A stretch of 64,000 bases of DNA from positions 1 through 64,000 of the forward strand of contig NZ_RBLU01000006.1 of NCBI RefSeq assembly GCF_003989515.1, read 5' to 3'. The notes beneath the pieces were generated by a model. The model was not told where the DNA came from. It saw only the letters and a program-made list of their open reading frames with translations, and made no database searches. The stretch is from Curtobacterium sp. HSID17257. GTDB taxonomy: Bacteria > Actinomycetota > Actinomycetes > Actinomycetales > Microbacteriaceae. Below, one piece after another: positions 49,706 through 57,246 of this stretch. A program made the translations under genes and the position numbers. Within the stretch, counting starts at the first letter, position 1; each line of letters begins with the position of its first letter.

Positions 49706-49737
49706 GGGACTGCTGCAGGTTCGGTTGACTCGTTCGT

Positions 49738-50606
49738 TTAGGCCGCGAGTGCGACCGTTGGGTTGATGATCGTCTCGTACTCGATAGGGGTCAACTTCCC
49801 CAGACCTCGTTGCCGTCGTTTCCGGTGATAGGTCGCCTCGATCCAGGTAATGATCGCCAGCCGGAGCTCTTCCCGGGTCGCCCAACGTTTCCGGTTCAGG
49901 ACGTTCTTCTGCAGGAGCGCGAAGAACGATTCCATCGCCGCGTTGTCCGCGCACGCACCGACGCGGCCCATCGATCCGAGCAGCCCGGCGTCGCTGAGCG
50001 CGCGGACGAACTTCTTCGACCGGAACTGGCTGCCCCGGTCCGAGTGCACAACAGTCCCGGCCGGGTTCCGGCGGTGCACCGCCATATGCAGGGCCGCGAC
50101 GGCGAGCGAGGACCGCATCGGTCACTGATCGAGTAGCCGACGATGCGCCGCGAGCAGGCGCCCTTGACCGCGCAGAGGTAAAGCTTGCCCTCGCCGGTCG
50201 GGTGCTCGGTGATGTCCGTCAGCCACAGCCGGTCCAGGTCTGGTGCCGTGAATGCCCGTCGGACCCGGTCGTCGTGCACCGGTGGCCCGGCCTTGTGGTT
50301 CAGGCCGCGCTTCTTCGCATGCAACGACCAGAGCCGCTGCTGTGAGCACAGCCGCCACACCCGCCGTTCCGAAACCCGGAGGCCGGCCGCGTGGAGGTCG
50401 TCGGCGATAAACCGATACCCGAACGTCGGGTCGTCGCGGTGCGCGTCGATCGCTGCGTTGGTCAGGTGCGCGTCGTCCCAGTCCCGCTTTGACACAGGGC
50501 TGGCACGCCACCGATAGAACGCCTGCTTCGTGAAGCCCAGCACCCGGCAGGCCACCGCGACCGGGATCCGGTCTGCGGCGAGTTCGAGGACCAGCGGGTA
50601 GATCAT
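49738..50606 (-). pseudogene. IS3-family orfB transposase, frameshifted
   Basis: DDE rve integrase. Frame 1 (50606 to about 50120) has AVACRVLGFTKQAFYRWR, the HTH_21-like FGYRFIADDLHAAGLRVSER, and the first Asp in LDRLWLTDITEHPTGEGKLY. Frame 2 (about 50117 to 49738) carries the second Asp in TVVHSDRGSQFRS and the Glu in NAAMESFFALLQKN. A single missing base near 50116 (between SISDR and the following MRSSLAVAAL) separates them; 869 bases is one short of a multiple of three. The ATG overlaps the orfA stop. Confidence 0.9.
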
Positions 50607-50899
50607 TTTGGGAGCTGGGACTGGGCGAAGTACGCCGCTGCCCGGCGGAGGATCTCGTTCTCCTGCTCGAGCAGCCGGATCCGTTTCTGCGCGTCCCGCA
50701 GCTCCACTTGCTCCATCGCTTTCGCCGACGGCGCCGCTCCAACACTGATGCCGTCGTCGCGGTCCGCGAGCCGCAACCAGCGGGCCAGGCAGGACTCGGA
50801 GACGCCGAAGTCCTTCGCGACCTGCCGCACCGACGTCTCGCCCTTCCGGGCGACCGCGATCACGTCACGGCGGAACTCTTCCGGATACGCCTTCACCAT
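50603..50899 (-). CDS. IS3-family orfA transposase
   Basis: 98 aa from ATG at 50899. HTH region YPEEFRRDVIAVARKGETSV RQVAKDFGVSESCLARWL, and a leucine zipper in ELRDAQKRIRLLEQENEILR. The stop overlaps the orfB start (ATGA, preceded by CCAAA), the usual site of programmed frameshifting in this family. Confidence 0.92.
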   Translation of the reverse strand: MVKAYPEEFRRDVIAVARKGETSVRQVAKDFGVSESCLARWLRLADRDDGISVGAAPSAKAMEQVELRDAQKRIRLLEQENEILRRAAAYFAQSQLPK

Positions 50900-51006
50900 G
50901 GCGCACATCCTTCCAGCAGGAGCCAACGCCCTACCTGTCAGGAGTCAACCGAACCTGCAGCAGTCCCAAACGGTCGTCCGGCCGCCACGACGGCTTGAAG
51001 CGGCAG

Positions 51007-51285
51007 CTAGATACGCGACTGCGTCGAACTCGAAGAGTTGCCTTCGAATTCTGCCTCGCGCGCGCGTTTGATCCACAACGCGACGGATGAGGGGTTCTCG
51101 TCGATCAGCTCGGCAATCTGGCGGATCGAGAGGCCGAACTCCGTCGCCGCGACCATGAGATGGCGGCGATCAACCTCGCTCCTCCGGTACGTCTCGTTCG
51201 TCGATTGCAGCCGACGTACCACGTCATCGCGCGCGGCACGAGCGCGCGTTCGAATCTCGAGTGCCTCACGGTGTGGATTGGCCAT
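51007..51285 (-). CDS. Small HTH protein
   Basis: 92 aa from ATG at 51285 with GGAAGGA five bases upstream. A helix-turn-helix-like stretch EFGLSIRQIAELIDENPSSV ALWIKRA follows a helical, Arg-rich N-terminus. Function unknown; may be an orphan regulator or IS-associated. Lies 40 bases past the IS right end. Confidence 0.65.
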   Translation of the reverse strand: MANPHREALEIRTRARAARDDVVRRLQSTNETYRRSEVDRRHLMVAATEFGLSIRQIAELIDENPSSVALWIKRAREAEFEGNSSSSTQSRI

Positions 51286-51763
51286 GACGATCCTTCCAAA
51301 GTGACGACAGGCGCAGTTGAACGCGCGACCGACGTCGTGCGAAGATTGCTCCGCCGTCCTTTCATTGGAAGGGTGGCCACATCTCATATCAGCGCTACCG
51401 TTGCGATCATTCGGCCACTTTCCAGGGCTGCCGACGACCGCGCGGATCGAGCCGGACGCAATCGCGCTCCGGCTCGCGCTGTTCTGGCACAGCGTACCGT
51501 CGCCTGGCGCACCAGCGCGCGACGCTGAAAAAGTTCACGACGAATATTGTGACGGCGCGGACGCAGGCTTCTTGCGCCAATCGCAAGCTGCTTCAGTCAG
51601 CTGCCGCGCCCCCGTCCGGCCTGCTAACGACATATGAGACAAATGCGCGAACAGCAGTTACTGTAAGCAATTCTCCGGCCGGTCGTCTGACTATTGCGCA
51701 GTCGGAGGATCGCGTGTTGAGTTCGTCCACGCAATGGACAGAACGACGGGCCGGGAGGCTGAG
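51286..51763. other. Region without a supported gene
   Basis: 478 bases, less GC-rich. Open frames (for example 51317-51637 plus) lack ribosome sites. It must hold the promoter of the operon at 51764. Confidence 0.5.
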
Positions 51764-52120
51764 ATGACGACACCGCCGAGGCTGGACGAGCCTGCCGCTC
51801 AACGCGTGCAAGAGGACCGTGCCGCTCAACGGCGGCGAATCCGTGCTGCAGCTGCGGCGCTCCGCATGGATCCCATGTCATTCGCCTGCTGGATGCTCAA
51901 CCATGCGCACCAGCAGCAGGCTCCGTCCGAGTATCGGCCCAAGCCGTGGCTCATCAGCGTGATCTCGGCGACGCGGCTGCACCGTGACGAGCAGGTCGTT
52001 GTCCGGCTCCGTCAAGGCTGGCGTTTCATCCTCACCTTCCACGGCAAGCCCTTCGCCATGATCGTCCCGCTCGAAGCGCCAACGAAGCCAACCTCGACGT
52101 CGAACGTCGGGCCGGAATGA
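51764..52120 (+). CDS. Phd-like small protein, possible antitoxin
   Basis: 118 aa from ATG at 51764, GGGAGG five bases upstream. The second half, LISVISATRLHRDEQVVVRL and GWRFILTFHGKPFAMIVPLE, has the Phd/YefM pattern (xxSAxxxRxx ... HGKPxAxIVPL). The N-terminal half is helical and basic. First gene of a three-gene overlapping operon; the stop overlaps the next start (ATGA). The Phd assignment rests on this motif only. Confidence 0.6.
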   Translation: MTTPPRLDEPAAQRVQEDRAAQRRRIRAAAAALRMDPMSFACWMLNHAHQQQAPSEYRPKPWLISVISATRLHRDEQVVVRLRQGWRFILTFHGKPFAMIVPLEAPTKPTSTSNVGPE

Positions 52121-53016
52121 TGCCGGCGGAGGGCCCCGGACGCCAGCACGGCATGGACCGGCTCCGACTCAACGGTGCCGAGCGCCGACGGTGGCCGACC
52201 GGGACCGGCCGCATGGGCGACGACTTCACCATCCACGGTGAGACCTCCGTCGCCGTCTCCGGCGACTGGGAATCCCGGGGGGAAGCCGTGTTCCCGCTGA
52301 TCCGCCGCCTCGCTCGGCAGCACCCGTCGGTGCGCACCATGCTTCACCTCGGCGACCTGCGATGGGTGCCCGCGCGCCGCGTGGGAAAGCAGCGGCTGCA
52401 TCTCTACGACGGATTCCTGCCGAAACTCGACGCGGAACTAGGCCGCGCTCGGCTACGGCTCCTCCTCACACCCGGCAACCACGACGACTGGTCGTCGCTT
52501 CAACCGGCGTTCCTTGCGCATCCCGAGCGGCCGCGACGACTCACTCCCCACATCTGGGCGTTGCCGCGAGGGCTCCGGTTTCACATCGGCGGTCGAACGT
52601 TCCTGTCGTTCGGCGGTGCCGTCTCACTGGACGCGGACCGCGGCACGGCGGAGATTCCCACGGACGACGACATGCGACGGGCCGCGGCCGGGGGCCGCGT
52701 CGACGTCCTGCTAACTCACGAGCCGCCGAACGCCGGTATCGCAGCTGTCGAGAGGACCCTCGAGGCGCACCAGCGGTGGAACGCGGATCGTCTGAACCTC
52801 TCGGCTTCGAGTCGAAGCCGCATCGATCACCTCGTGGACCAGGTCCAGCCGAGTCTCAGCTTCCACGGCCACATGCACGTGGGCGGCCGCGTCGACTCGG
52901 GGGGTCGGAGGACCGTGGCGCTATCTGTGATCGGCATGCCCGGGAACACGGTGATCCTGCGACTCGGGACGCTCGAGGTCGACGCTCTTAAAACGGCCGA
53001 GACCGAGTCGAACTAA
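52117..53016 (+). CDS. Calcineurin-like metallophosphoesterase
   Basis: 299 aa from ATG at 52117 (ATG at 52120 also possible). Metal-binding motifs in order: SVAVSGDWES, MLHLGDLRWV (GD), LTPGNHDDW (GNHD, about residue 125), VLLTHEPPN, and SFHGHMHVGG (GHxH, about residue 250). A phosphodiester or phosphomonoester hydrolase with two metals; it could act on nucleic acids or nucleotides. Overlaps the gene before it by four bases and the next by one, so all three are made together. Confidence 0.88.
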   Translation: MMPAEGPGRQHGMDRLRLNGAERRRWPTGTGRMGDDFTIHGETSVAVSGDWESRGEAVFPLIRRLARQHPSVRTMLHLGDLRWVPARRVGKQRLHLYDGFLPKLDAELGRARLRLLLTPGNHDDWSSLQPAFLAHPERPRRLTPHIWALPRGLRFHIGGRTFLSFGGAVSLDADRGTAEIPTDDDMRRAAAGGRVDVLLTHEPPNAGIAAVERTLEAHQRWNADRLNLSASSRSRIDHLVDQVQPSLSFHGHMHVGGRVDSGGRRTVALSVIGMPGNTVILRLGTLEVDALKTAETESN

Positions 53017-53915
53017 TGAGGGTCCGCTCCGCGGAGAACAGCCGCAGTGGACGATCCTGGCGAAACGAGACACTCGAACCAGTCGACCGCATCCGGAAGC
53101 GCGTCATCGAGCTTGCCGTCAGCCAGGGCGGACTGGTGACGCTGCCGCAGATCGCCCCTGCACGCGCTGCGCGGGAGGGGCGACGAGCCATGGCGACGTT
53201 ATCTCGTATGGGCGAGGTCGAACGCGTCGGAACGGACGTGTGGGTGCATCGCGTGGCCGACCGGTCGGCCTTCGACTCCGCGCTGCGCGCGGAAGCGGCC
53301 TGGGTCCTCCTCGACCCCACCCGTCCCGCATGGGCGCGTGCACGACGAGCGCGTGCCGGCGGACAATCCGTTGCCGTGATCGGCGGCGGGGCCGCTTATC
53401 AGCGGTGGGGGTTCGGTCCGACCACATGGCCTGCCGAACTGCACACCCCGGACGGCAACGCTGTCCGCTTCGCAAGCCTGGACGTCGAGGTGCGCCGGAA
53501 GGAAGTCGAGCCCGACGACATCGTCTGGTTCGGCCCGTTCCCCTACCTCGGCGTTGAGGCGACCCTCGCCGGATCGTTCGCGTGGGACGGCGACCTCGAC
53601 TCCGTCGCCGCCAATCTCGCTGACGCCCTGTGGCGCTTGCATCCCGTCGACGGAGGACGACTGCGAAAACATCTGGCGACCCTCCACCGGACCGATGACG
53701 AGCGGGCAGCAACCGTCGAAGCCGACAATCGGTGGGACGAGTTGCTTCGTCGAACGGGGCGACGGCACCCTCAACCTGTCGGCGGTGCAGGATCCGCGTG
53801 GCGGCAGAACCGCCCGCCCTCGGACGCGGCAATTGCACGCTACCGCGCAGCACTCGACCCGGAACGGCGCGCGCAGCTCTGGACGAGCGTCGTGCAAGAG
53901 TTCCACGGGTCCTGA
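53016..53915 (+). CDS. AbiEi-like winged-helix protein
   Basis: 299 aa. N-terminal winged helix IELAVSQGGLVTLPQIAPAR and RRAMATLSRMGEVERVGTDV WVHRV fits AbiEi-type antitoxin N-terminal domains. The middle has AWVLLDPTRPAW and the region ELHTPDGNAVRFASLDVEVR RKEVEPDDIVWFGPFPY, similar in layout to the AbiEi_3/4 C-terminal domain. No AbiEii nucleotidyltransferase partner is present; the phosphoesterase takes its place. The last ~40 residues look disordered. Confidence 0.6.
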   Translation: MRVRSAENSRSGRSWRNETLEPVDRIRKRVIELAVSQGGLVTLPQIAPARAAREGRRAMATLSRMGEVERVGTDVWVHRVADRSAFDSALRAEAAWVLLDPTRPAWARARRARAGGQSVAVIGGGAAYQRWGFGPTTWPAELHTPDGNAVRFASLDVEVRRKEVEPDDIVWFGPFPYLGVEATLAGSFAWDGDLDSVAANLADALWRLHPVDGGRLRKHLATLHRTDDERAATVEADNRWDELLRRTGRRHPQPVGGAGSAWRQNRPPSDAAIARYRAALDPERRAQLWTSVVQEFHGS

Positions 53916-54185: not shown

Positions 54186-56012
54186 TCACCGGGTGCCTTC
54201 GTGCTGCGACGGCACGTATCCGCTCTTGCGCGGCGGCCGGGTCTTGGGTCCCTTCTGCCGGTGCGCAGGGGTTGGGCGCTGCGAGCGGCGGCGCTTCCCG
54301 ACGGAAACGGTGCGGACGTCGGTTGATGTGAGGGTGACCTCGTCGCCGTACGCAGAGTGTCGCAGAGCGGTGTTGATGGCGATGCACCGGATGGCGAAGA
54401 GGACGGCGTTGGCGGTGGTACCCGTGACGGTGCTGCTGGCCCGTCGCATCGTGCCGAAGTTCTTCTTCAGGTCGGCCATCTTCGCCTCGCTGGCGTTACG
54501 CATCCCGTAGAAGGCCAGCCACTTGCTGGTGCCGTAGATGTACTTCTGCCGGATACGAATGTGTTCGTCAGCTTCGAGTGTCGGCGTCTTGTCGCACCAG
54601 CAGCCCCCGCCGGGCACACAGTTTGTGGGTGGGGCGCCGCGCTGTATTGCACGGTGGGGATCGACGTTGGGGCAGTCGATGTGGCCGAGGTAGGCGGGGC
54701 CGCGGTATTGCCACTTGCCGTCGGGCTTGGGGTCACCGTTTGGCACGAACGCGTACTTGGCACGTGCGTCGTACTTGGCGGTCAGCTCACCGCGTTCGGC
54801 TTTGGACATGCCTGGGTGGTAAGCGGGCAGCTCGCGGAGCGCCTGCGGCAGCGCTTTTGTGAACAGCGTCCCGTCAATGATCACGACATGCTTGAACATC
54901 TTGTGCTTCATCAGCCCTCGCTCGGTCCGTTGGTTGGGATGCAGATCGTGGACCCAGGTGATGCGCCGTCGGAGGAGCGGCAGGGCCCAGCGGTATGCCA
55001 CGGAGTAGCTGTATCCCCGGTCTGAGCACAACGTGTCGACGGCGAAACGGTCGTCGATGCTGTCTAGGAGCGCGATTCCGGCGTCGCCCTTGTGCGATCC
55101 GGCAGGTCGGAGCACCATGCCTCGGATGAATTGCACGTAGTGCTCGGCGCCGTACCATCCGGCATCGACTAGGACGTGGGCGTCCCAGCCGACGAAGTTG
55201 GTGGACCGGTTGCCATTGACGACGGTGCGATATCCGCAGCGGGCGTCGATGTCGTCGCTGAGGATGAAGCGTCCGTCGGTGCCTCTGAGGAGCTGGCCGA
55301 TCGGCAGACCCCACTTTTTTTCGTCCTTGGCGTGGTCGGGTACGTATTCGTCGTCGCCGTCGGGGCGCGCCAGTTGGGCACGGAGAGCAGCTGAGGTTTC
55401 GATGTCTGTGGAGTCCATCGCCGCGACTTTCGTCGCAGGGCACGAGTCGGGGATCGATGCTGCGATCAGCGTATTCAGGATCCTGTCGCGGGTGCTCAGC
55501 TCGGGGATGCGTTCCCGGATGACTCCGGCCTGGGCGACGCGGTGCGGGGAGTCTTCGTCGTCGATTAGTTCGACGAAGCCGTGGAACGCGCCGATCATCT
55601 TGTAGTAGTGCCACTTTTCGTGTGTCAGGCCCGCGCGGATGCGGTCCTGGTTACTCAGCTCCCAGAGCGCCCACTTCGCCAGGTCGAGGAACACCATGTC
55701 CCGGTCGGGCCGCTGCACCTGGTACGCGATCATGAGGATCAGCATGGTGCGAAGCGTGACGTGCCGTTTGGGGCCGGGTCGACGCTCGTCCCACCAGAGG
55801 ACGCTTCGTTGGATGTCGGATCGGTCAATGATCTTGATCGCGAGAGTGATCGCGCGGCGGCAGCTCAGCGGCCTGGCGGCCGAGGCGGTGGTGGGGAGTC
55901 GGCCGTCCGCGGTGAGCCACGCGACGGCGTATCGGAGCCGGTCGAGGGTGCTCGTGCGGGTCAGCTCGCCATCGCCGTGGCTGGCGATACGGCCGAGCTT
56001 GCTGGCGTTCAC
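54186..56012 (-). CDS. Transposase-like protein of a recombinase module
   Basis: 608 aa from GTG at 56012. Regions typical of DDE transposases: AMDSTDIETSAALRAQLA, HVLVDAGWYGAEHYVQFIRG, and FAVDTLCSDRGYSYSVAYRW; the C-terminal part has MRNASEAKMADLKKNFGTMR with a late acidic residue. A cysteine motif CVPGGGCWCDK may bind metal. A very basic tail follows. Overlaps the 87-aa gene (GTGA), so it is the last of three coupled genes. Not an IS family I can name. Confidence 0.7.
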   Translation of the reverse strand: MNASKLGRIASHGDGELTRTSTLDRLRYAVAWLTADGRLPTTASAARPLSCRRAITLAIKIIDRSDIQRSVLWWDERRPGPKRHVTLRTMLILMIAYQVQRPDRDMVFLDLAKWALWELSNQDRIRAGLTHEKWHYYKMIGAFHGFVELIDDEDSPHRVAQAGVIRERIPELSTRDRILNTLIAASIPDSCPATKVAAMDSTDIETSAALRAQLARPDGDDEYVPDHAKDEKKWGLPIGQLLRGTDGRFILSDDIDARCGYRTVVNGNRSTNFVGWDAHVLVDAGWYGAEHYVQFIRGMVLRPAGSHKGDAGIALLDSIDDRFAVDTLCSDRGYSYSVAYRWALPLLRRRITWVHDLHPNQRTERGLMKHKMFKHVVIIDGTLFTKALPQALRELPAYHPGMSKAERGELTAKYDARAKYAFVPNGDPKPDGKWQYRGPAYLGHIDCPNVDPHRAIQRGAPPTNCVPGGGCWCDKTPTLEADEHIRIRQKYIYGTSKWLAFYGMRNASEAKMADLKKNFGTMRRASSTVTGTTANAVLFAIRCIAINTALRHSAYGDEVTLTSTDVRTVSVGKRRRSQRPTPAHRQKGPKTRPPRKSGYVPSQHEGTR

Positions 56013-56272
56013 GCGGCGTCTTCGGCGTCGTGGTCGGCGAGCAGCATGCCAGTTGGGTCGAACATGTCCAACCACTGTGGCTGAGATCGGGCTTTAGATG
56101 CGATCGACCCTCCGAAGTCCTGCGTTGTCAAGACGATGGAGGCCGTCGCGCCGCATCCGACGATGCGGCGCCGTCGGCGGGTGCGATCGAGGGCGTGCGC
56201 ACCGCCGGCGAGCCAGCGACCGCGCAAACGAGGATGGGGGCGAGACCCGCTAGGGGTGGGAGTGGTTTTCAT
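56009..56272 (-). CDS. Small middle protein of the recombinase module
   Basis: 87 aa. Basic N-terminus (SRPHPRLRGRWLAGG, TRRRRRIVGCG) and an acidic end LADHDAEDAA. Start overlaps the upstream stop (ATGA) and its stop overlaps the next start (GTGA). No homology recognised; could be an accessory DNA-binding subunit. Confidence 0.6.
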   Translation of the reverse strand: MKTTPTPSGSRPHPRLRGRWLAGGAHALDRTRRRRRIVGCGATASIVLTTQDFGGSIASKARSQPQWLDMFDPTGMLLADHDAEDAA

Positions 56273-57246
56273 GCGTCGTACCCGGCGGCGCGTCGGAGGT
56301 CGGCGCGCGCCATGTCCTTTCGTTCATCGAGGTAGGGGATGGTGCTGTCGAATCGGTACGAGGCTTGACCGCCGTACTCGAGGATCCGGTTGAGAGGGAA
56401 CCCGTCGTCAAGGAGTCGGACCAGCCACGTCGAGCGGAATCGTTCTGTGTCGGGCTTTGACACCGAATCCGGGATGACGAGACGGCTGCGCGGACGGAGG
56501 AGCGGATCGCGTTGATCGGGCCGGAACGGGCCCGCGAGAGGTTCCTCAGGATGGGCGGCCATGAGTGCGCGGACTCGGTCGGCGTACTCTCGGCGCAGCG
56601 GGACAATTCGCTCGCGTGGAGATCGAATGTGCACGAGCAACATGCCGTCGTCCTCGGTGATGTCGGAGCGGGCAATGAAGCGCAGCTCGGTGTTGCGGAC
56701 TCCCGCTCCGACGCAAAAGCACACCCACGAGTCGAAGAACCGGGTGCGCAGCCGCGTGGTCTGGAGCAGGACGGCTGCGTCGATCTCGGCTAGCTCGTCG
56801 GGCGTGTACGGCGGCGCGATGCCGCGGTGGTTCCAGGTGGGGTGCTTGCGCTCCTGGGGTACTTTGCGGAGGGTTCCGCGTGCGACGCGGCGCAGACTGG
56901 TGCGGTACGCCTTCCGGGTGTTGTTCGAGATCGAACCGAGACCCGTCGCCACGAACGCGTTGATGTGCCGCTCGCTCAGCAACACCTCCGGTGTGAGGTC
57001 CAGACCGAGTTCGTGCGCCCAGAAGATCTGTCTCGACAGTGCCTGTTGCACGGCCAGGAACGTGGGCATCGTGGTGATGTCCGTCTGTAGGATCCACTCG
57101 CGCAGCAAGTGTTTGCCAGTCGTCTCCCAGAACGGACTCCACCGCGACGGGGTGTAGCGGCCGAGCAGGGTAGCCGCGTCGATCTCAAGCGGGCCGCCCT
57201 TCACGCGAGACAACAGCACCGGCGCATTCTCGTCGTCGTCGATCAC
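56269..57246 (-). CDS. Tyrosine-recombinase/integrase-like protein
   Basis: 325 aa from GTG at 57246 with a GGAGG five bases upstream; a TTG at 57357 would add 37 residues. N-terminal SAM-like core-binding part (LLREWILQTDITTMPTFLAV, NAFVATGLGSISNNTRKAYR). Catalytic part: CVGAGVRNTELRFIARSDI (first Arg), then RFRSTWLVRLLDDGFPLNRI LEYGGQASYRFDSTIPYLD where family members have HxxR ... LGH ... Y; here the His residues are replaced (RFRST, EYGG). It may be an unusual recombinase or a DNA-targeting subunit of the module. Confidence 0.72.
   Translation of the reverse strand: MIDDDENAPVLLSRVKGGPLEIDAATLLGRYTPSRWSPFWETTGKHLLREWILQTDITTMPTFLAVQQALSRQIFWAHELGLDLTPEVLLSERHINAFVATGLGSISNNTRKAYRTSLRRVARGTLRKVPQERKHPTWNHRGIAPPYTPDELAEIDAAVLLQTTRLRTRFFDSWVCFCVGAGVRNTELRFIARSDITEDDGMLLVHIRSPRERIVPLRREYADRVRALMAAHPEEPLAGPFRPDQRDPLLRPRSRLVIPDSVSKPDTERFRSTWLVRLLDDGFPLNRILEYGGQASYRFDSTIPYLDERKDMARADLRRAAGYDA

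What the first reader, a model, noticed from the sequence alone, without database searches (positions are those of the whole stretch)
51764..53915. Three-gene overlapping operon: Phd-like, metallophosphoesterase, AbiEi-like
Starts and stops overlap by 4 and 1 bases, so the three proteins are made in fixed ratio. A Phd-like protein and an AbiEi-like protein are both antitoxin-type DNA binders from different toxin-antitoxin classes; the enzyme between them is a two-metal phosphoesterase with all motifs intact. No known toxin partner (Doc, AbiEii) is present. I know of no described system of this composition. It could be a toxin-antitoxin or phage-defence unit with the phosphoesterase as effector.
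Basis: inference. Interest (0 to 1): 0.75.

Follow-up and report, generated by a model that had tools for sequence, protein, structure and literature searches.

The report
Mobile phosphoesterase with two antitoxin-like partners
A bacterial jumping element carries a phosphate-cutting enzyme in one operon with two proteins that resemble antitoxins, a grouping kept in relatives, which suggests an untested toxin-like or virus-defence unit.

Summary
The three overlapping genes are real. Gene 2 is a calcineurin-like metallophosphoesterase (MPE); gene 3 is AbiEi-like (PADLOC E=1.5e-16); gene 1 ends in a Phd/VapB-like domain, with remote support only. One detail is wrong: metal motif I is D-x-E, not D-x-H. 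The linkage is not strain-specific. Among 66 Curtobacterium genomes this AbiEi subfamily is found at E<=1e-90 in six, each within 0.35 kb of an MPE, in three arrangements; the full Phd-MPE-AbiEi order occurs in three, with a conserved divergent HTH gene. Other MPEs of the clade have other small partners, some antitoxin-like. Many copies lie on mobile elements (DDE transposase plus tyrosine recombinase, or Tn7-like genes); one sits beside a type II restriction system. Best reading: a mobile toxin-antitoxin-like or abortive-infection module with the MPE as effector (about 0.5). Toxicity, neutralisation, substrate and phage defence are inferred; a count of defence models near MPEs showed no enrichment. 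A published mycobacteriophage MPE is toxic through its active site, which makes the reading plausible but is not homology evidence. No described system of this composition appeared in the search listings I saw.

The parts
51764..52120 (+). Phd/VapB-like protein, 118 aa: helical N-terminal half, C-terminal Phd-type half (about residues 62-105)
   Evidence: searches (PDB 3dbo_A E=0.0035; low-confidence model, b-a-a-b-b order at 66-101), 119/121/122
52117..53016 (+). Metallophosphoesterase (PF00149), 299 aa; motifs GDWES / GDLR / GNHDD / LTHE / GHMH
   Evidence: (AlphaFold2 pLDDT 92.7)
53016..53915 (+). AbiEi-like protein, 299 aa: N-terminal winged-HTH-like part (by resemblance) and AbiEi-like C-terminal part
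51007..51285 (-). Divergent small HTH protein (92 aa), conserved upstream of the same operon in L033 and L081
   Evidence: HTH_23 and sigma70_r4_2 just under their cut-offs
51449..51475 (.). Imperfect palindrome at an aligned place in the HTH-Phd intergenic region of the three triad loci; candidate operator
   Evidence: window match 51450-51474; 13 of 100 shuffles held a match with up to 2 mismatches, so weak by itself
54186..56012 (-). DDE-type transposase, 608 aa; in the 20 Curtobacterium genomes searched, found only near this MPE
   Evidence: (PF01609 E=8.8e-4, under cut-off)
56269..57246 (-). Tyrosine recombinase next to the transposase
   Evidence: (PF00589 1.1e-6)

Best explanation
The three genes form a toxin-antitoxin-like or abortive-infection module carried by a mobile element. 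In an unstressed cell the Phd/VapB-like and AbiEi-like proteins hold the MPE in check, by binding it and/or by repressing the shared promoter (with the divergent HTH protein as a further regulator). If the element is lost or infection upsets that balance, free MPE cleaves a phosphodiester, most likely in a nucleic acid or nucleotide, and stops growth; this would keep the element in the population and limit phage spread. Shown: gene structure, family resemblance, linkage kept through changes of gene order, mobile-element setting, an active site that keeps motifs II-V. Inferred: toxicity, neutralisation, substrate, autoregulation, phage defence.
For: Overlapping operon. AbiEi subfamily at E<=1e-90 in 6 of 66 Curtobacterium genomes, each beside the MPE (gaps -1 to 315 nt by my gene calls): downstream on the same strand in G000, G353, G455; upstream on the same strand in G221; divergent in G017, G031. 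The link needs at least 3 changes on the MPE tree, so it was kept or regained more than once. Phd-like protein in 3 of 66, all as Phd>MPE>AbiEi. Its only other hit in 398 family genomes (E<=1e-4) is the VapB of a vapBC pair. Other close MPEs have another antitoxin-like neighbour: in L027 the MPE overlaps a protein whose N-terminus resembles TacA1 antitoxins (PF08681 5.6e-4, 20.3 bits against a cut-off of 21) and whose C-terminus aligns with gene 1 at 22% identity overall. In more distant MPEs HTH proteins, one with a weak Xre/MbcA/ParS match, flank the MPE. Mobile elements. In G455 the triad lies with a type II MTase (2.4e-112), a REase (3.5e-49) and a dGTPase (1.3e-75) beside the same transposase. 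A phage MPE, Gp48, is toxic in mycobacteria and its active-site mutants are not (PMC12287305, section 11 read).
Against: No toxicity, binding or phage test exists. Gp48 is an MPE of Cluster A mycobacteriophages; one of that group, Bxb1 gp47, shows no detectable sequence relation to this MPE; Gp48 itself was not compared. Motif I lacks the usual His, so activity may be altered or lost. PADLOC counts near the MPE were not above control regions. The triad is rare (3 of 66 genomes) and was seen only in Curtobacterium in what I searched. The AbiEi matches in G353 and G017 run over stop codons (2 TGA, 1 TGA), so these copies may be shortened. Many of the 57 MPE loci show no recognised antitoxin-like neighbour. 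G385 holds an AbiEi fragment without a close MPE.
Confidence: 0.5

Rival explanations
1. The MPE and its DNA-binding partners belong to the mobile element's own control: they set when the transposase and recombinase act, as Bxb1 gp47, an MPE-like protein, does as a recombination directionality factor.
For: In 20 Curtobacterium genomes picked by hand, the 608-aa transposase was found in 6 of 10 with a close MPE, always near it, and in 0 of 10 without. 10 of 16 MPE loci carry transposition or recombination genes of two kinds. An MPE fold can serve as a directionality factor (Bxb1 gp47, stated in PMC12287305, passages read).
Against: The MPE occurs with at least two different transposition systems and, in 6 of 16 loci, with neither within the 19 kb looked at, as cargo would. 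Bxb1 gp47 acts with a serine integrase and shows no sequence relation. Motifs II-V are kept.
Confidence: 0.18
2. The MPE is a defence or detoxifying enzyme that is not toxic to its host: it destroys phage nucleic acid or a nucleotide signal, and the Phd-like and AbiEi-like proteins are only its repressors.
For: Nearest solved fold is Dbr1, the RNA lariat debranching enzyme (Foldseek 1.9e-11; VIA Z 19.2; best row that is not Dbr1 Z 17.5). Phages of actinobacteria encode distant relatives (213 of 50,697 records). AbiEi and Phd proteins are known autoregulators (established knowledge).
Against: More than one kind of antitoxin-type partner, rather than ordinary repressors, favours a toxin. The Dbr1 lead over other MPE folds is small and a shared fold shows no function.
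Confidence: 0.2
3. Independent passengers: unrelated TA remnants and an MPE were gathered on one element and have no joint function.
For: Mobile islands collect genes; partners vary; a stray AbiEi fragment exists in G385.
Against: AbiEi-MPE co-occurrence 6 of 6 with the gene order changed (Fisher p=2.3e-6, species not independent), overlapping start and stop codons, conserved divergent HTH gene and alignable intergenic DNA.
Confidence: 0.1

Closest known systems
AbiE type IV toxin-antitoxin (AbiEi-AbiEii)
   Same: AbiEi-like regulator in an operon with an enzyme; same profile family (PADLOC AbiEi)
   Different: No AbiEii nucleotidyltransferase among the scanned neighbours; the enzyme is an MPE, and the AbiEi gene lies after it, before it or divergent from it
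Type II TA with Phd/YefM-type antitoxin (Phd-Doc, VapBC)
   Same: Antitoxin-like gene first, overlapping the next gene by 4 nt, as in the VapB-PIN pair seen in L163
   Different: No Doc or PIN toxin; an MPE in that place; an extra AbiEi-like gene
Mycobacteriophage MPEs: A10ZJ24 Gp48 (PMC12287305); D29 Gp66 and Bxb1 gp47 as described there
   Same: MPE superfamily; Gp48 is toxic through its active site
   Different: Phage genes; no antitoxin-like partners are described in what I read; Bxb1 gp47 shows no sequence relation here
Dbr1 lariat debranching enzyme (PDB 5k73, 4peg)
   Same: Nearest solved fold of the MPE model
   Different: 12-15% identity, eukaryotic protein; motif I differs (recalled: Dbr1 has Cys in place of Asp)

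Membership tests
Calcineurin-like metallophosphoesterase (PF00149) | Profile match above the curated cut-off | tested here: met
   34 bits against 21.5, E=5e-8
Calcineurin-like metallophosphoesterase (PF00149) | Five metal-binding motifs with D-x-H as motif I (motif scheme recalled) | tested here: not met
   Motif I is D-x-E in the window; motifs II-V present. Superfamily membership rests on profile and fold, so this lowers only the claim of an ordinary active site
Calcineurin-like metallophosphoesterase (PF00149) | MPE fold | tested here: met
   Model pLDDT 92.7; the 50 rows shown, Z 14.2-19.2, are MPE-fold proteins by their titles
AbiE type IV TA system | AbiEi antitoxin homologue | tested here: met
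   PADLOC PDLC02231 1.5e-16, 7.7e-17 for L033; no Pfam AbiEi hit for the window protein
AbiE type IV TA system | Adjacent AbiEii nucleotidyltransferase toxin | tested here: not met
   None among the four scanned neighbours at 50.6-57.4 kb
AbiE type IV TA system | Antitoxin counters the toxin without a stable complex and autoregulates | not testable with these tools
   needs experiment
Phd/YefM (VapB-type) antitoxin | PF02604 match above cut-off | tested here: not met
   No Pfam match for gene 1 or its L033 relative
Phd/YefM (VapB-type) antitoxin | Remote sequence similarity to recognised Phd/VapB proteins | tested here: inconclusive
   For: PDB 3dbo_A E=0.0035 (recalled as M. tuberculosis VapB5); PF02604 protein of a vapBC pair E=6.8e-6. 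Against: hhalign with one other Phd gave no match
Phd/YefM (VapB-type) antitoxin | b-a-a-b-b fold | tested here: inconclusive
   Order seen at residues 66-101 but mean pLDDT only 59.6
Phd/YefM (VapB-type) antitoxin | Binds and neutralises the neighbouring toxin; represses its promoter | not testable with these tools
   needs experiment
Bxb1 gp47-type directionality factor | Sequence relation to gp47 | tested here: not met
   BLASTP best E 1.2; hhalign probability 0.8%
Bxb1 gp47-type directionality factor | Partner serine integrase | tested here: inconclusive
   The recombinase at 56269-57246 is of the tyrosine type (PF00589); no serine integrase among the neighbours scanned, but the whole genome was not searched

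The most novel reading that the evidence does not exclude
This MPE clade is a new toxin fold in a combinatorial toxin-antitoxin network of Actinobacteria: one enzyme paired in different mobile elements with Phd/VapB-like, RHH-Phd-like, AbiEi-like or Xre/MbcA-like partners, used as a phage-triggered abortive-infection effector that cleaves RNA or a nucleotide signal, with a D-x-E metal site special to a Curtobacterium branch.
Probability: 0.35. Interest if true: 0.8.

Novelty: new variant of a known kind. Interest (0 to 1): 0.6.

Why it matters
If the MPE is the effector, a large and common enzyme superfamily gains a TA or abortive-infection branch, and two antitoxin classes thought to serve different toxin types would be shown to share one toxin. 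The partner changes between related elements would give a natural test of how toxins acquire new antitoxins. It would also add a transposase-recombinase element that carries defence cargo in a plant-associated genus.

Tried and rejected
Chance ORFs: rejected, relatives of all three genes at 40-58% identity lie together in other genomes.

MPE as a Bxb1 gp47 relative: rejected on sequence. Whether Cluster A phages are among the 213 phage records was not checked; 20 rows were listed.

Defence-island enrichment by PADLOC counts: failed as a test. 144 genes near 16 MPE loci matched 28 families at 1e-10, 144 control genes matched 52; of each list 25 were shown, the control ones mostly housekeeping cross-hits by name, such as PD-T4-6 and mad3. 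Single strong matches near some MPEs (DolA, DolB, a pAgo-associated REase; RM in G455) are not a statistic.

Phd by profile comparison with one relative's Phd: no match. Structure of gene 1: low confidence, so not searched against PDB.

Viral contigs: no relative confirmed. Plasmids: 18 of 72,556 records with distant MPEs; I opened 6 of them, and by their annotation tables only Frondihabitans L018 has a directly overlapping small partner gene. L018 also has a sub-threshold PF02604 match (E=0.24) in the next gene.

AbiEi subfamily outside the genus: at E<=1e-22 none but the window in 396 genomes of the order; at E<=1e-25 four of 398 in the family, all Curtobacterium. Weaker hits (down to 1e-8, two more at 1e-15 or better) were not followed.

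Operator search: the promoter scan found nothing (sigma-70 consensus, poorly suited to this genus); a palindrome script found no long near-perfect repeat in the window.

Paper PMC6591296 (phage FNU1), the one listed paper that holds all three of metallophosphoesterase, AbiEi and antitoxin, was checked by passages: a 739-aa MPE at 122-124 kb and an AAA-type 'AbiEii' at 37-38 kb, not a shared operon.

Limits of counts: profiles A4, A6, A7 were built from members of these loci, so those match by construction; what informs is the lack of matches elsewhere. The transposition models were built from MPE neighbours, so its 10/16 against 0/16 shows only that such genes are not ubiquitous, and its p value is not an unbiased test. 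The 20 genomes were picked by hand (10 with a close MPE, 10 of the 56 without). The 57 loci leave out six duplicates (L034, L043, L044, L047, L049, L080); not entered at all were L035, L036, L042, L046 (duplicates), the plasmid and phage loci L019-L024, and 4 of the 46 places (a fifth lies inside L085). Cluster C0 there mixes HTH proteins and a small beta-type protein. My gene caller missed the MPE itself in L025 and L081 and trimmed gene 1 in the window, so gene tables are approximate.

Full report
What is there. Three + strand genes overlap at 51764-52120, 52117-53016 and 53016-53915, by 4 and 1 nt. The window is contig C219 of a 3.35 Mb genome. I therefore take the genome to be Curtobacterium.

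The enzyme. Gene 2 matches PF00149 above the cut-off. An AlphaFold2 model from 33 sequences has pLDDT 92.7. The nearest solved structures are Dbr1 lariat debranching enzymes (Foldseek 1.9e-11; VIA Z 19.2, 213-224 residues at 3.1-3.8 A for the eight best rows), ahead of aq_1956 (Z 17.5), purple acid phosphatase (16.5) and Rv0805 (16.0). The Dbr1 lead is small and a fold is not a function, but it makes a phosphodiester in nucleic acid a fair first guess. Motifs II-V are present.

The AbiEi-like protein. Gene 3 has PADLOC AbiEi E=1.5e-16, and a relative beside another MPE reaches Pfam AbiEi_4 at 0.001, under the cut-off. Among 66 Curtobacterium genomes the subfamily is found at E<=1e-90 in six: G000, G017, G031, G221, G353 and G455. 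All six are among the ten genomes with an MPE at E<=1e-90, and the two genes are neighbours in each, with gaps of -1 to 315 nt by my gene calls (Fisher p=2.3e-6, species not independent). Orientation differs: downstream in G000, G353 and G455, upstream in G221, divergent in G017 and G031. The matches in G353 and G017 run over stop codons, so these copies may be shortened. On the MPE tree the AbiEi link needs at least three changes. A seventh genome, G385, has a fragment (2.4e-30, 1 TAG inside the match) and no MPE at 1e-20. In a sample of 398 family genomes the subfamily at E<=1e-25 is confined to the genus, and in 396 of the order only the window's own copy passed 1e-22.

The Phd-like protein. 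Gene 1 has no library hit. A three-row profile (window, L033, L081) matches PDB 3dbo_A, which I recall as M. tuberculosis VapB5, at E=0.0035 over the C-terminal half. In 398 family genomes the profile at E<=1e-4 hits the triad copies in G000 and G353 and one other protein. That one is a PF02604 antitoxin (1.2e-7, above cut-off) overlapping a PIN-domain gene by 4 nt, i.e. a vapBC pair. The AlphaFold2 model is poor (59.6) but shows the expected b-a-a-b-b order. A profile comparison with one other Phd found nothing. I call gene 1 Phd/VapB-like, not a proven member.

The unit. All three have a divergent small HTH gene upstream, and the DNA between is alignable, with an imperfect palindrome at the same place. 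The palindrome is a candidate operator and weak by itself.

Other partners. Close MPEs without AbiEi have other small partners. In L027 the MPE overlaps by 4 nt a protein whose N-terminus resembles TacA1 antitoxins (5.6e-4, just under the cut-off) and whose C-terminus aligns with gene 1; L026 has a relative of it 1.1 kb downstream. Further away, HTH proteins, one with a weak Xre/MbcA/ParS match (0.007), flank many MPEs; this cluster (50 proteins in 27 of 57 loci) is mixed and only partly antitoxin-like. The MPE clade is patchy: 37 of 398 Microbacteriaceae at E<=1e-20; by tblastn 18 of 72,556 plasmid records and 213 of 50,697 phage records hold distant relatives.

Mobile setting. Downstream lie a DDE-type transposase and a tyrosine recombinase. 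The transposase was sought in 20 Curtobacterium genomes picked by hand: 6 of the 10 with a close MPE have it, within 0.2-7.4 kb of the MPE (in G353 as two pieces), and 0 of the 10 without. In 16 MPE loci of the family, 10 carry either this pair or its relatives, or Tn7-like TnsB/TnsC/TniQ genes; none of 16 control stretches of the same genomes does (the models came from MPE neighbours, so only the control side is informative). In G455 a type II methyltransferase, a restriction enzyme and a dGTPase-like gene lie between the transposase and the triad. A plain count of PADLOC families did not show enrichment near MPEs.

How it most likely works. Linkage kept through rearrangement, more than one kind of antitoxin-type partner for one enzyme, overlapping genes and mobile carriage are what one expects of a toxin-antitoxin-like or abortive-infection module with the MPE as effector. 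That an MPE can be such an effector is shown elsewhere: mycobacteriophage A10ZJ24 Gp48 stops growth of mycobacteria and damages host DNA, and active-site mutants do not (PMC12287305; outline, passages and section 11 read). Gp48 was not compared here; Bxb1 gp47, from the same phage group according to that paper, is not detectably related to this MPE. Nothing here shows toxicity, binding or defence.

Literature. Searches for metallophosphoesterase with AbiEi, antitoxin, Phd, anti-phage, toxin-antitoxin, abortive infection or Curtobacterium, for calcineurin-like phosphoesterase with defence islands, and for antitoxin classes with partner swapping (listings: 15 of 141 papers, 87: 3 of 3, 88: 2 of 2, 89: 15 of 196, 92: 8 of 25, 111: 8 of 8, 112: 4 of 4) showed no described system of this composition among the listed titles and abstracts. 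Two papers were opened: PMC12287305, and passages of PMC6591296, which does not describe one. The library holds open-licence papers only.

Verdict. I score it a new variant of a known kind, interest 0.6.

Noticed in passing
window 49706-50967: IS3-family element with perfect 26-bp inverted ends; its second reading frame appears as two overlapping ORFs in different frames (49738-50118 and 49896-50606). It ends about 40 bp from the divergent HTH gene.
   Followed up: no
window 54186-57246; L026, L028, L030, L081, L160: A DDE transposase plus tyrosine recombinase(s), in L026, L028 and L030 with a related 76-85 aa protein (C19), forms an element whose transposase was seen only near the MPE in the 20 genomes searched; its ends and type were not worked out.
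   Followed up: partly
L027 7731-9374: MPE fused to a C-terminal domain with a weak HTH_17 match (E=0.071), resembling separate proteins next to other MPEs.
   Followed up: partly
L038, L039, L084, L096, L098, L107-L109, L115, L117: Recurrent small (mostly about 90-125 aa) beta-type proteins flank or overlap the MPE in more distant relatives; the two of this type that I scanned alone had no Pfam match above cut-off (L038, L040).
   Followed up: no
neighbours of 16 MPE loci: Four of 144 neighbour proteins match HAD_SAK_2, a HAD domain of RNA-repair proteins; possibly of interest given the Dbr1-like fold.
   Followed up: no
L018 and L043: Frondihabitans sucicola carries the same MPE region, identical over 9,832 bp, on its chromosome and on its plasmid, beside a gene annotated as a recombinase.
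   Followed up: partly
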